Shown here: one piece after another, positions 4,461-63,580 of the stretch
Layout of the letters: every line of letters starts with the position of its first letter
Position numbering within the stretch: the first letter of the stretch is position 1
Source: Enterococcus lacertideformus
GTDB taxonomy: Bacteria > Bacillota > Bacilli > Lactobacillales > Enterococcaceae
DNA length: 64,000 bases
NCBI GenBank assembly: GCA_015680865.1
Contig: JADAKE010000013.1
Coordinates: 1 to 64,000 of the forward strand
Direction: 5' to 3'
Program-made: the position numbers and the translations under genes
Notes under the pieces: model-generated
Databases searched by the model: none
What the model was told of the DNA's origin: nothing
The model's input: the letters and a program-made list of their open reading frames with translations, nothing else

Positions 4461-5566
4461 ATGAGAAAGAAATTCGTTTTTTGTAGTGTTCCCGACTTTT
4501 CAGACAACGCGCGAGCAATGTTTGAATTTATGGTTGAGTACCCAATTGAGGGTGAATATATTTGGTTATTCAATGATAGTGAACAGATAAAAGATCTTTT
4601 TTTTGATAAATATAAAGAAAAAAATATAAAATTTATTCAAAAAAATTCGTTTATAGGAATTTATCATTATCTTACCGCTACATTTTCTTTTTCAGATCAT
4701 GGCATATTTAATAATATCCCTAAAATACTTTCTCCAAAAAAATTGAATTGTGGCACGGTATGCCATTAAAGCAAATTGGTAATTATCATGAAAAAAATAC
4801 TATTTTTTTTGCTAAAACAATCGCTACCTCGCCTATTTTTGACAAAGTTTTATGTAAAGCATTTGGCATAACTGACAAACAATTAATAGCTACTGGACTT
4901 CCTAGAAATGATAAACTTTTTTTGGAAAGCTCCTACAATATAAGTCAATTATTCTTTCAAAATGATTATCCAGTGATAGCCTGGCTACCTACGTTTAGAA
5001 AACATATATCAGGAGATTATCATGATGGAGAATTTGAAAATGATAAATTAGCTTTTTTTGATTTAGATGAATTAAAAGAACTAGACCAGCAATTAAAGCA
5101 ATCGAAAAAAAATCTCCTAGTGAAACTACATCCATTGGATATTTTAAATCAAGAGAAGGAACTAGACAGTGCTTTGGAACAAATTAGGATTTTAACTACC
5201 GATCAATTTGAAAAACAACATTTCGATTTGTATAAAATCTTATCAGCGGTTGAAGGCTTGATTACCGATTACTCTTCTGTATATTTTGATTTCTTATTAA
5301 CAAAAAAACCAATTGGGCTAGTCCAAACAGATGTGGAAGAATACAAAAATACACGAGGTGTAATTAAAGAAATTGAACAAAAGATGATTGGAACAAAAAT
5401 AAAATCAAAAGAGGATTTTGTTCGATTTATCATTGAAGAAAAAAAGAATGAATTGAATTATGACGAGCTAATCAATATTTTTCAAGAGCGTGATACACAC
5501 GGCAATAACGCAAAAGCGATATGCATCTATCTTCAACTGATAAAGGAAGATAAGAAAAGTCAATAA
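4461..5566 (+). pseudogene. CDP-glycerol glycerophosphotransferase family (TagB/TagF-like), frameshifted
   Basis: The reading frame changes near 4735-4745 within a run of seven A bases. One extra A joins the halves as PKKIELWHGMPLKQIG. WHGMPLKQIG is the hallmark of CDP-glycerol:poly(glycerophosphate) glycerophosphotransferases, and later HPLD (near 5149) and TDYSSVYFDF (near 5265) supply further conserved His, Ser and Asp residues. The native protein would have about 368 residues. Such enzymes transfer glycerol-phosphate (or ribitol-phosphate) onto a membrane-linked polymer, which fits the tagD homologue at 7040. The family call is confident. Whether the one-base loss is genuine or a read error is not decidable here. 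Confidence 0.85.
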
Positions 5567-5582
5567 AGAAGTTGAGTGAATT

Positions 5583-7043
5583 ATGAAGAAAATTTTAAGT
5601 AATATATTTTACAATGCGACCTATCAAATATTTATTATTATTATCCCTATTTTGACTGTCCCGTTTGTATCAAGAATTTTAGGTGCACAACAATTAGGGA
5701 TTAATTCATTTTTATTGTCAATTAATACTTTTTTAGGTGTTGTAATCTTAATGGGCCTTGGCCAATTGGGCGTTAGAATTATTTCTAAATCAGAAACTTT
5801 AGAACTCAGAGAAAACTTTTTTAACTTGTGGAAATTACAGTTGATTTCTGGCGTACTAGTTACTGGATTGTTTTGTATTAGTACTTTTTTATTTGTAGAT
5901 GATAAATTTTATTATTGGCTACAAATACCAATTTTGTTGTCCTATATTTTAGATATCTCATGGTTTTTTATAGGTATTGGCGAAATTAAGACCGTGATTA
6001 CTAGAAATACAGCAGTAAAAATTGCTATGTTGATTTTAATCTTTTCTTTAGTAAAAACTCAAGATGATTTAGGGTTATATATGTTGATCAACAGTGTAGG
6101 TTCATTGTTGGCTAATCTGTTTTTTTGGATTTCTTTGAGAAAATATATCTGTGTCTCAGAGCAAAAACTCCAACACTTCTCTTTAAAGCCTAGTAAAAAT
6201 GCTAAAATTTTATTATTACAATCATTAACATTGCTCGTACCACAAATTGCTGTCCAAGTTTATACGAGTCTTGATAAAACAGTTGTTGGTTGGATCGCTG
6301 GATCAACTCAGCTTTCATATTATGATCAATCACAAAAGATCGCACGGATTGTTCTTTCAATCGTTACATCAATAAGTGTGGTATTAATGCCAGCAATGGC
6401 AAGGATTGATGGAAGTGAAGAGGGTGAAAAAAAATTAAATCAAATTTTAAAGGTATCATATGATTATACGCTGATTATTTCTTTATTTTTTGCTTCATTC
6501 TTGTTCTCGATTTCTAGTATATTTGTTCCTTTTTTCTTTGGTAATAGTTTTTCTTCAATGATCCCTAATATGAAATATGTTAGTATTATAATTATCCCGA
6601 TTGCTATCGGTGGTGTGTTTGCTAACCAGTTTACTTTAGCAAAGGGAATGTATAAAGAATATTCTATCCCATATGTGGTTGGTGCTGTTCTTAATATCTT
6701 ATTAAACCTAAGTCTAGTTCCAGTATTTAAAGCAAATGGTGGAACTGCTAGTTTAATTATAACGGAATGCATTGTGTGTATTTTACGTATTTTTTTGATA
6801 AGGAAACAAGTCGATTTAAAAGTCATTTTTAAAGGACAAACAAAATTTATCATAGCTACAATTATCACTTTATTTGTTGGAAACTTTCTAGTTGTAACCA
6901 ATATCAATGCATTTATAGATATTTGTTTAAATGGTCTGATTTTGCTAATCGTATTTGTAGGCTGTTTAGCTCTGTTTAAAACAAGAATTTTGAATGATCT
7001 TTTGTTAGTCAAAAATAAAGTTACTAGAGGAGACAAAAAATGA
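5583..7043 (+). CDS. Lipid-linked oligosaccharide flippase (Wzx/RfbX, MATE-like)
   Basis: This is a 486-residue protein with 12-14 membrane segments. The N-terminus (NATYQIFIIIIPILTVPFVSR) and the central SLDKTVVGWI stretch are typical of Wzx flippases of low-GC Gram-positives. It would move undecaprenyl-linked repeats across the membrane for the EpsG-like polymerase. The stop overlaps the tagD start (ATGA at 7040), so the two are translationally coupled. The reading frame is intact, unlike both neighbours. Confidence 0.9.
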   Translation: MKKILSNIFYNATYQIFIIIIPILTVPFVSRILGAQQLGINSFLLSINTFLGVVILMGLGQLGVRIISKSETLELRENFFNLWKLQLISGVLVTGLFCISTFLFVDDKFYYWLQIPILLSYILDISWFFIGIGEIKTVITRNTAVKIAMLILIFSLVKTQDDLGLYMLINSVGSLLANLFFWISLRKYICVSEQKLQHFSLKPSKNAKILLLQSLTLLVPQIAVQVYTSLDKTVVGWIAGSTQLSYYDQSQKIARIVLSIVTSISVVLMPAMARIDGSEEGEKKLNQILKVSYDYTLIISLFFASFLFSISSIFVPFFFGNSFSSMIPNMKYVSIIIIPIAIGGVFANQFTLAKGMYKEYSIPYVVGAVLNILLNLSLVPVFKANGGTASLIITECIVCILRIFLIRKQVDLKVIFKGQTKFIIATIITLFVGNFLVVTNINAFIDICLNGLILLIVFVGCLALFKTRILNDLLLVKNKVTRGDKK

Positions 7044-7434
7044 AAAAAGTAATCACATACGGAACCTTTGATTTGCTCCATTATGGACATATTAATTTAT
7101 TAAGAAGAGCGAAAGAACAAGGATATTATTTAATTGTTGCTCTTTCTACCGATGAATTTAACTGGAATGAAAAACAAAAAAATGCTATTTTGAATTTGAA
7201 AAAAGAAAACAGCTTCTTGAAGCGATTCGTTATGTAGACTTAGTTATTCCAGAAGAATCATGGGAACAAAAAGTAAGCGATATTAAAGAATACAAGGTTG
7301 ATAAATTTGTTATGGGGGATGACTGGGCCGGTAAATTTGACTTTATTGAAAAAGAAACAGCTGCTGAGGTTGTCTACCTGCCAAGAACACCAGAAATTTC
7401 AACTACACAAATCAAAAAAGATCTTGAAGGTTGA
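7040..7434 (+). pseudogene. tagD: Glycerol-3-phosphate cytidylyltransferase (TagD), frameshifted
   Basis: The start reads TYGTFDLLHYGH, containing the cytidylyltransferase HxGH nucleotide-binding motif. After EKQK the frame shifts in a run of seven A bases near 7171-7177; adding one A restores CYFEFEKRKQLLEAIRYVDL and runs through KFVMGDDWAGKFD to the RTPEISTTQIKKD motif and a TGA at 7432-7434. The native length is about 131 residues, normal for TagD/GCT. The enzyme makes CDP-glycerol for teichoic-acid-like polymers, the donor for the TagF-like enzyme upstream, which carries the same kind of lesion. Confidence 0.9.
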
Positions 7435-7900
7435 AAATGAAGAGCTTAAGTCATGGGTAGGTAGTTTTATCAGTGAGGTACACTTCTTCATTCAAAGTAA
7501 AAAATGAATACTGAGAAAATACAAAAATAGAAACACTTGTTTTTCATGTTTATTTCTAATTTCTTTATTGTTTCGATACTTGTTTGTATTTAAGAGTCAA
7601 CGAATAAGTACGGTATTTATTTTGAGTAGAAAAAGTTGATCAATAAAGACAACTATTTTATAGGGGGAGAAGATAATCTAGAAGGATTAGAAATATTCTT
7701 GAAAAATCCTTACAAAAAACAACCTGAAAAAATTATAAATAACTATGCTTTTGAAGGTTGGTTTAGAAATATGTTATAAGAACAAAGGTGAATGAAAATA
7801 GTTTTTTTTATTCAAACTATAATAGTGATGTTTTCATCATTCTATATGTACTAATTTATAAACCAACTAATTTATAAACCAACTAATTGGAGTGAAATTT
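7435..7900. other. Gene-poor stretch with a short ORF remnant and a 16-bp tandem repeat
   Basis: There is no convincing gene here. A frame from 7636 (TTG) to 7779 encodes 47 residues including YFIGGEDNLEGLEIF and NYAFEGWFRNML. It has no good ribosome binding site and looks like the 3' end of a deleted gene. A tandem repeat abuts the epimerase start. The spacing between tagD and the epimerase is unusually large for this cluster, which suggests a past deletion. Confidence 0.5.
7851..7888. repeat. 16-bp direct tandem repeat, 2.3 copies
   Basis: The unit CTAATTTATAAACCAA occupies 7851-7866 and 7867-7882 exactly, followed by a third partial CTAATT. It lies directly upstream of the ribosome binding site of the epimerase gene. 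Confidence 0.9.
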
Positions 7901-62804: not shown

Positions 62805-62857
62805 CGACTACGAATATTCTTCTGACTGGGATATGGAAGACATTCGTAGTTTTTTGT
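62805..62857 (+). terminator. Terminator of the ABC transporter operon
   Basis: ACTACGAAT (62807-62815) pairs with ATTCGTAGT (62842-62850), then T run. Confidence 0.85.
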
Positions 62858-63213
62858 TAAAAGGAGTCAACTAAGAATTAATTTTAGCAGATTAGCAGGT
62901 CAGAAAATTATTCGTCTCACTCTTTTAACTTATATGAAGACAGTAGGTTCTTGTGAGCGAATGGGAGAGGCGGACCAATTATTTTTTATGTTGAAATAAG
63001 AGAAGGGTCAGTATACTTTATAAGAATAAATTCAATCTGTGTATTTTTATAAAAATCTCAGAGTGTTTTATTTGTAGGTTCTCTATGTACATTTAAATTG
63101 ATTTATAAAAATAATGAACAAGTAAAAGGAGATATATTTTTTTGCTCCTATATGACTTAATCTGCTAGTATATTTGAAGCTTTTTCTTTAATTAAGTTTT
63201 TATTAAAAAAATA
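62858..63213. other. Gene-free stretch before the type VII locus
   Basis: I see no gene, no RNA and no strong repeat. Confidence 0.5.
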
Positions 63214-63243
63214 TTGACAAATTTAATTGAAAACGTATACAAT
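63214..63243 (+). promoter_or_regulatory. Sigma-A promoter of esxA
   Basis: TTGACA (63214-63219), an 18-base spacer and TACAAT (63238-63243), 41 bases upstream of esxA. Confidence 0.8.
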
Positions 63244-63283
63244 ATCTGTGTACATAAAATGAATATAGACTGGAGAGGTTAGA

Positions 63284-63580
63284 ATGGCAGGAGCAATTTC
63301 CGTCACACCCGAACAACTGAAGTCACAAGCAAAGGTTTATACACAGTCACAGCAACAAATTCAAGATGCGATTCGTAAGGTGAATTCAATGAATCAACAA
63401 ATCGCTCAAGAATGGAAGGGACAAGCGTTTCAATCGTATTTGGAACAGTACAAATAATTAGAAGGAAATGTCAAAAAAATGGAAGAATTATTGCTTAGTA
63501 TCAATAGTCAGTTGAACAAGTATGCAGATACAGTTGCGCAACGTGATCAACAAGATGCAAGTTCTTTCGGCTTAAGCTAA
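63284..63580 (+). pseudogene. esxA: WXG100 protein EsxA with an in-frame TAA
   Basis: 98 residues if read through, a helical hairpin: ISVTPEQLKSQAKVYTQS, the turn EWKG (WxG, Trp near residue 44), then the second helix. A TAA at 63455-63457 follows QSYLEQYK where a Gln codon is likely; the frame continues LEGNVKKMEELLLSINSQL and YADTVAQRDQQD, which carries the Y-x-x-x-D/E-type secretion signal. EsxA is the small dimeric substrate of type VII secretion. The stop would remove most of the second helix. Confidence 0.9.

What the first reader, a model, noticed from the sequence alone, without database searches (positions are those of the whole stretch)
4461..63580. Exceptional density of broken reading frames, including genes expected to be essential
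Well over 25 lesions lie in 64 kb. About half are one-base losses in A or T runs (tagF-like, tagD, serine hydrolase, acpP, accB and others). The rest are nonsense changes, start losses, short duplications and larger deletions. Hits in acpP, fabF, accD and prfC argue that many are sequence errors. The duplications, the clpE and fabH deletions and the decayed 21-24 kb block are harder to explain that way.
Basis: partly seen in the sequence, partly recalled or inferred. Interest (0 to 1): 0.7.

Follow-up and report, generated by a model that had tools for sequence, protein, structure and literature searches.

The report
Enterococcus genome caught in early decay
This stretch belongs to an undescribed Enterococcus whose genes, above all the set for making fatty acids, look truly and recently broken rather than misread, as expected of a bacterium that is coming to depend on a host.

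Summary
The density of broken frames is real. In 52 aligned genes the window has 29 private frame-breaking indels (25 after setting aside four at doubtful starts), against 2 in an E. hirae-like genome, 4 in E. villorum and 10 (48 genes) in E. durans. Sequence error is a poor main explanation. At most 6 of 15 one-base events lie in runs of six or more. The broken ClpE, AccB and serine-hydrolase products each recur letter for letter on three database contigs; for the last the longest is 13,081 bases, so none is the window's own. The window has excess amino-acid changes at residues invariant in the other enterococci compared: 42 of 3,732 against 7, 17 and 14 of about 3,900. The excess is significant in lesion genes and in unbroken fatty-acid-synthesis genes (9 of 439 against 3 of 1,329), not in other open genes. 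Six of ten FASII genes are broken. Best reading: recently relaxed selection in an undescribed Enterococcus, with FASII released as a pathway, probably living on outside fatty acids. The kind is known (SOPE, Sodalis; fatty-acid-auxotrophic lactobacilli). Host, read support and the rest of the genome are unknown.

The parts
4461..5566 (+). CDP-glycerol glycerophosphotransferase (tagF-like), frame split in two
   Evidence: Pfam PF04464 on both halves; no relative aligned
7040..7507 (+). Cytidylyltransferase (tagD-like), frame split
   Evidence: Pfam PF01467 on the first part only; no relative aligned
9200..10413 (-). Serine hydrolase (PF00144), two one-base losses
   Evidence: 243-aa product exact on three other contigs
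21031..22496 (-). Two neighbouring frames of unknown function in the decayed block; also two frames in the hirae-like reference
22384..22533 (+). 50-residue remnant of a gene of 554-559 aa in relatives
22814..24301 (+). Mur-ligase-family gene with five frame-breaking indels and a premature stop; oldest-looking lesion set
   Evidence: family from the relative's protein
25936..26431 (-). TspO/MBR family gene, one-base gain
26640..28244 (+). Chitinase-like gene (fn3 and CBM5/12 domains found), premature stop near the start
28988..29722 (+). DUF697-like gene (match below Pfam cut-off), premature stop
34672..35817 (+). AI-2E family transporter, premature stop
38036..39638 (+). prfC, premature stop and two-base deletion
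41759..43783 (-). clpE, 270-base in-frame deletion; the precomputed domain list lacks PF17871, which the longer relatives at the top of the list have
   Evidence: exact product on three contigs
48865..49774 (+). NAD-binding dehydrogenase (PF03446), two-base loss inside and one-base loss near the end
50436..51487 (-). GIY-YIG domain gene, one-base loss and five-base gain
51632..52105 (+). fabT, open, no change in 90 invariant residues
52103..52944 (+). fabH, one-base gain and 89-base deletion
53022..53270 (+). acpP, one-base loss early in the gene
   Evidence: name from position and reader
53363..54298 (+). fabD, open, changed at invariant residues (2 of 112)
54289..55026 (+). fabG, open, changed at an invariant residue (1 of 92)
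   Evidence: name from order and recall
55031..56290 (+). fabF, one-base loss early in the gene
56242..56786 (+). accB, one-base and two-base losses
   Evidence: 135-aa product exact on three contigs
56796..57215 (+). fabZ, open, changed at an invariant residue (1 of 97)
   Evidence: name from order and recall
57211..58604 (+). accC, two-base gain; frames of 379 and 89 codons against 460 in villorum and durans
   Evidence: name from order and recall
58605..59474 (+). accD, premature stop
59467..60246 (+). accA, open, six-base in-frame deletion, changed at invariant residues (5 of 138)
   Evidence: name from order and recall

Best explanation
The window is chromosome of an undescribed Enterococcus about equally distant from E. 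hirae and E. villorum. Its genome is in an early phase of degeneration. Selection was recently lifted from many genes, and small deletions, duplications, nonsense mutations and a few larger deletions now accumulate in them. The type II fatty acid synthesis operon has been released as a pathway: six of its ten synthesis genes are broken and the other four are gathering amino-acid changes at residues that relatives keep. Shown: the lesion excess, recurrence of three broken products on other contigs, and relaxed constraint in lesion genes and FASII genes. Inferred: the cell takes fatty acids from a host or rich surroundings by the fatty acid kinase and PlsX/AcpB route known in E. faecalis, and lives in a host-restricted niche with small populations.
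For: Private frame-breaking indels 29 of 52 genes' alignments against 2, 4 and 10 in relatives. Mixed lesion sizes, 18 of 25 deletions, at most 6 of 15 one-base events in runs of six or more. Exact broken ClpE, AccB and serine hydrolase on three contigs each, longest 114,385, 66,883 and 13,081. Changes at residues invariant in the other enterococci: 42 of 3,732 against 7 of 3,912, 17 of 3,902, 14 of 3,886 (pooled P 5e-8). By group against hirae-like, villorum and durans together: FASII with lesions 8 of 530 v 4 of 1,677 (accC not included); FASII open 9 of 439 v 3 of 1,329, P 0.00035; other lesion genes 17 of 1,275 v 19 of 4,266, P 0.0013; other open 8 of 1,398 v 12 of 4,158, P 0.13. N/S counts agree: FASII open 18/55 v 8/123, P 0.0003; other open 68/308 v 115/654, P 0.20. 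Of 105 Enterococcaceae genomes two lack accD and score under the cut-off for fabH, fabF and BCCP, so the pathway can be lost in the family.
Against: No reads could be mapped, and the sources of the matching contigs are hidden, so they may come from the same reads. Broken genes mostly keep low dN/dS over the whole branch (0.01-0.19 for the 15 genes flagged), so the lesions must be very recent. Outside the old block lesions fall on genes as if at random (P 0.20 and 0.11), which errors would also give. Within the window the FASII-open against other-open contrast is P 0.009 for invariant residues but 0.20 for N/S, and the grouping was made after seeing per-gene counts. One relative, G010, shows as high an overall rate, 36 of 3,428, though 16 of the 36 are in two neighbouring genes. 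Only one transposase remnant was noticed, no IS expansion. Second copies of FASII genes elsewhere in the genome cannot be excluded.
Confidence: 0.7

Rival explanations
1. Most lesions are base-calling or consensus errors of an unpolished assembly; the genome is ordinary.
For: Up to 6 of 15 one-base events are in runs of six or more. Lesions outside the old block are spread over genes as if at random. prfC, clpE and fabF keep low dN/dS. Such errors have broken housekeeping genes in this family before: two frameshifted genes of Melissococcus plutonius DAT561 were put down to 454 homopolymer errors and were intact in a new sequence (PMC6116112, passages).
Against: 3 of 3 broken products tested recur exactly on three contigs each. 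Ten of 25 indels are longer than one base, with one of 89 bases, plus a 270-base in-frame deletion. Private missense changes are in excess in lesion and FASII genes but not significantly in other open genes.
Confidence: 0.17
2. A mutator phenotype (oxidised-guanine repair, MutY/MutM type) drives the decay, rather than loss of selection alone.
For: Among single-base changes at invariant residues 12 of 33 are G:C to T:A, against 9 of 93 pooled over 11 other species. The window's mutY is open but has a private change at a residue invariant among the enterococci compared and kept in the solved Geobacillus-type MutY sequences shown, three before the aspartate that I recall as catalytic.
Against: All private missense changes taken together are led by G:C to A:T (35 of 136) with G:C to T:A second among G:C classes (21 of 136), and silent changes show no excess (19 of 677 against 12 of 760 and 23 of 740). 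Relaxed selection alone can raise the share of radical changes. Many lesions are indels, which this repair route does not explain.
Confidence: 0.06
3. The DNA is dead: a bacterial fragment moved into a eukaryotic genome or relic DNA, with no selection on any gene.
For: Lesions hit many kinds of genes.
Against: CpG observed/expected is 0.89, like villorum 0.89 and near hirae-like 0.93 and durans 0.96; other open genes are not significantly changed.
Confidence: 0.03
4. Some frames are rescued by polymerase slippage in A-runs, as recalled for some insect symbionts, so genes that look broken still work.
For: A minority of lesions are in long A or T runs.
Against: The acpP, fabF and accC indels, the fabH deletion and the prfC and accD stops are not in such runs.
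Confidence: 0.03

Closest known systems
Young insect symbionts SOPE and Sodalis glossinidius (PMC3499248, PMC3914690; passages read)
   Same: Many genes disrupted at once, small frameshifting deletions as the commonest class, open genes under relaxed selection (cryptic pseudogenes)
   Different: Gram-positive Enterococcus; no IS expansion noticed in the window; host and transmission unknown; only 64 kb seen
Melissococcus plutonius, Enterococcaceae (PMC6116112; passages read)
   Same: Same family; 75 to 156 pseudogenes per genome of about 2.07 Mb taken as host-adaptive reduction
   Different: About 36-75 per Mb there; about 20 lesion genes in 64 kb here, roughly 310 per Mb; the paper has no occurrence of 'fatty acid' in its main text
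Fatty-acid-auxotrophic genital-tract lactobacilli (PMC11429459; passages read)
   Same: FASII genes such as accABCD, fabH and fabF missing or not intact
   Different: There the genes are mostly gone and auxotrophy was shown by growth; here they are freshly broken in place and growth is untested
E. faecalis FASII deletion strains (PMC13372179 abstract; PMC11586512 and PMC12408189 passages)
   Same: Related genes in a fabT-headed operon; exogenous fatty acids can replace parts of the pathway
   Different: Laboratory deletions of single genes, not a natural lesion set over the operon

Membership tests
Early-stage host-restricted genome decay (SOPE/Sodalis type) | Large share of genes disrupted compared with relatives | tested here: met
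   20 of 52 genes by hand tally, two of them doubtful; private frame-breaking indels 29 v 2, 4, 10
Early-stage host-restricted genome decay (SOPE/Sodalis type) | Small frameshifting deletions are the commonest disrupting class | tested here: met
   18 of 25 frame-breaking indels are deletions, 17 of them under 20 bases
Early-stage host-restricted genome decay (SOPE/Sodalis type) | Open genes under relaxed selection (cryptic pseudogenes) | tested here: met
   FASII open genes 9 of 439 v 3 of 1,329; N/S 18/55 v 8/123; grouping post hoc
Early-stage host-restricted genome decay (SOPE/Sodalis type) | IS element expansion (seen in SOPE) | tested here: inconclusive
   One transposase remnant at 12459-13068; I made no dedicated IS search and saw only 64 kb
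Early-stage host-restricted genome decay (SOPE/Sodalis type) | Host restriction and transmission bottlenecks | not testable with these tools
   Source of the window is not told
FASII-deficient, fatty-acid-auxotrophic lactic acid bacteria | acc and fab genes absent or not intact | tested here: met
   6 of 10 synthesis genes of the operon broken; other copies elsewhere not seen
FASII-deficient, fatty-acid-auxotrophic lactic acid bacteria | Growth depends on exogenous fatty acids | not testable with these tools
   No culture
FASII-deficient, fatty-acid-auxotrophic lactic acid bacteria | Uptake route (Fak, PlsX, AcpB) kept | not tested
   These genes are not in the window as far as I identified it; no whole genome is held
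Sequencing artefact (homopolymer type) | Indels concentrated in long homopolymers | tested here: not met
   At most 6 of 15 one-base events in runs of six or more
Sequencing artefact (homopolymer type) | Lesions absent from other contigs | tested here: not met
   3 of 3 broken products tested recur exactly on three contigs each; whether from independent reads is not known

The most novel reading that the evidence does not exclude
An Enterococcus is caught in the act of becoming a host-dependent symbiont, and the synthesis of membrane fatty acids is among the first pathways to go, released from selection as one unit while its regulator fabT is still kept.
Probability: 0.4. Interest if true: 0.68.

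Novelty: new member of a known kind. Interest (0 to 1): 0.5.

Why it matters
Very young degenerating genomes are, as far as I recall, well described mainly in a few proteobacterial insect symbionts. A Gram-positive example from a genus with good genetics and close relatives would let the order of gene loss be read. It also bears on whether FASII is a safe antibacterial target, since it points to a natural lineage that may do without it. Practically, it shows that hits in so-called essential genes are not by themselves proof of sequence error.

Tried and rejected
Stop-codon reassignment: rejected, because premature stops of all three kinds occur and most lesions are frameshifts. Eukaryotic insertion: no CpG depletion. 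A clear MutY-type mutator: the spectrum is only partly as expected. Plain homopolymer error.

A first count of changed invariant residues (103) was inflated by misaligned stretches behind the prfC frameshift and around the clpE deletion; I dropped 74 rows by hand, leaving 29 against 3 (hirae-like) and 2 (villorum), and then redid the count with one automatic local filter for all species (residues from 27 genes). Premature stops listed in accC follow largely from a frameshift in the hirae-like reference itself and were not counted. A microhomology calculation gave only 5 (clpE) and 2 (fabH) matching bases; one search gave a repeat of 6 for fabH, and the overlaps of the alignment pieces are 8 bases for clpE (villorum) and 6-9 for fabH. 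So short direct repeats at the two deletions are likely but not settled. Lesion placement including the old block is more clustered than random (P 0.03 and 0.02), without it not (0.20 and 0.11).

Paper searches on Enterococcus with pseudogenes and homopolymer frameshifts, Enterococcus symbionts with genome reduction, Enterococcus fatty acid auxotrophs, E. hirae symbionts and Enterococcaceae lacking fatty acid synthesis (no hits) showed no title that describes this case; I saw listings only for these, apart from the papers named as read in passages or abstract.
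Full report
What the window is. From about 7.9 to 62.8 kb the window matches, largely in order, the chromosomes of E. hirae-like G006 and E. villorum (G001, L001), and from about 9.3 to 60.2 kb that of E. durans (G003, L003); the fetched durans contig ends there. Aligned genes are 82.7%, 82.8% and 78.7% identical to these, while hirae-like and villorum are 82.4% identical to each other. ptsI is 91% identical to the two nearest of the 15 genomes of the genus searched. So the source is a separate species about equally distant from hirae and villorum, for which no whole genome is held. 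In the protein database the listed relatives of its ClpE, AccB and serine hydrolase products reach 93%, 72% and 79% apart from the exact copies (for ClpE the best 120 of 7,997 were listed).

The observation. I took open frames of the hirae-like reference with their counterparts in the window, villorum and durans, aligned 53 genes and counted indels private to each species. In 52 genes the window has 37 private indels, 29 of them breaking the frame; hirae-like 6 and 2; villorum 6 and 4; durans 17 and 10 in 48 genes. Some of the relatives' events and four of the window's lie at gene starts, where the start codon is uncertain. Of the 25 window events that remain, 15 are one base long, four are two bases, and six are 4, 5, 5, 7, 19 and 89 bases; 18 are deletions. 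I count clear premature stops in the Mur-ligase-family gene, the chitinase-like gene, the DUF697-like gene, rlmD (near its end), the AI-2E transporter gene, prfC and accD. clpE has lost 270 bases in frame, and a gene of 554-559 aa is reduced to a 50-residue remnant. The statement that half the lesions are one-base losses in A or T runs is not: at most 6 of 15 one-base events are in runs of six or more.

Error or decay. Three observations speak for decay. First, the broken ClpE (656 aa), AccB (135 aa) and serine hydrolase (243 aa) products are each present letter for letter on three contigs of the protein database, with longest contigs of 114,385, 66,883 and 13,081 bases. A contig that held the window would be at least 64,000 bases for all three, so the three contigs of the hydrolase are not the window's own. 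The tool hides their sources, so they may or may not come from the same reads. One of these lesions is an in-frame deletion, one a one-base loss that is in a long run in one of three relatives, and the hydrolase fragment ends at one-base losses of which one is in a run of 6-7 in two of three relatives. Second, the window has private amino-acid changes at residues that are the same in all the other enterococci compared (at least 12): 42 of 3,732, against 7 of 3,912, 17 of 3,902 and 14 of 3,886 in hirae-like, villorum and durans (pooled P 5e-8). Of eight further species tested, seven lie between 0.05% and 0.58% and one, G010, is as high as the window, 36 of 3,428, with 16 of its 36 in two neighbouring genes. 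Third, the excess follows function. Against the three relatives it is significant in genes with lesions and in the FASII genes without lesions, and not in other open genes. Random base errors would not spare the latter. I made this grouping after seeing per-gene counts, the numbers are small, and within the window the contrast between FASII open and other open genes is P 0.009 for invariant residues but 0.20 for N/S.

How recent. Over the whole branch the 15 genes flagged as broken have dN/dS of 0.01 to 0.19, mostly close to relatives; long-standing pseudogenes would approach parity (PMC3914690, passage). The DUF697-like gene, not flagged there, gives 0.51 on a small dS. Apart from the 21-24 kb block, whose Mur-ligase-family gene has a raised dN (0.125 against 0.073 and 0.058), the lesions are therefore young. 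This is the state described for SOPE, in which many genes under relaxed selection have not yet been visibly broken (PMC3499248 and PMC3914690, passages).

Which function is lost. The operon that begins with fabT holds fabH, acpP, fabD, fabG, fabF, accB, fabZ, accC, accD and accA. fabT, fabD and fabF are named by NCBIfam; fabH, accD, fabF and accB also by the position of those families in G006; fabG, fabZ, accC, accA and acpP are from order and recall. Six of ten are broken. The four open ones carry 9 changes in 439 invariant residues against 3 in 1,329 for the relatives; accC was left out of that count. fabT has none in 90. [quoted passage not shown] faecalis (PMC13372179, abstract), and delta-fabI and delta-acpA strains are fatty acid auxotrophs that a C16:1 acid weakly feeds (PMC11586512, passage). 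PMC12408189 (passages) calls AcpA essential and AcpB, which serves exogenous acids, nonessential. The pathway can be lost in the family: of 105 Enterococcaceae genomes, 103 have accD and 102 have fabH above the cut-off; two, of 1.8 and 2.1 Mb, lack accD and score below the cut-off for fabH, fabF and BCCP, and a third has fabH in two pieces (fabF and BCCP were asked of six genomes only). Genital-tract lactobacilli are fatty acid auxotrophs that largely lack an intact FASII (PMC11429459, passages).

Mechanism proposed. Shown: private lesions, recurrence of three broken products, relaxed constraint in lesion genes and in FASII genes. Inferred: a supply of fatty acids makes FASII dispensable; small populations let harmful indels fix; the operon then breaks at random places, with missense decay in genes not yet hit. 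Random placement of lesions over genes outside the old block (P 0.20 and 0.11) is what this predicts for released genes, but is also what errors would give.

What remains open. The host, the completeness of the genome, second copies of FASII genes elsewhere (villorum has a second fabF above the cut-off), and read support; I could not map reads. A modest excess of G:C to T:A changes and an unusual MutY residue are recorded as a side lead only.

Noticed in passing
12459-13068: Transposase-like remnant (HTH_28, HTH_Tnp_1) in two overlapping frames; no downstream transposase frame was recognised.
   Followed up: partly
8918-9032 and 15772-15940: Short repeats of about 60-170 bases that match many places on many contigs of the E. 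villorum genome, some on both strands, like a dispersed palindromic element.
   Followed up: no
32219-33400: mutY is open but has a private change at a residue invariant in the enterococci compared, three before the aspartate recalled as catalytic; fits a weak G:C to T:A excess.
   Followed up: partly
63284-63580: WXG100-family protein (PF06013) whose frame ends after 57 residues; a membrane-protein frame runs off the window's end behind it. Described only.
   Followed up: no
L095 and L096 (G006): The hirae-like reference itself has accC in two overlapping frames (386 and 152 codons) where villorum and durans have 460.
   Followed up: partly
G010 contig C23, 165395-166581: A second fabF-like stretch with several stops inside in another species of the group.
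   Followed up: no
G020 and G068 (whole genomes): Two small Enterococcaceae genomes (1.8 and 2.1 Mb) without accD and below cut-off for fabH, fabF and BCCP, that is, probable natural FASII loss.
   Followed up: partly
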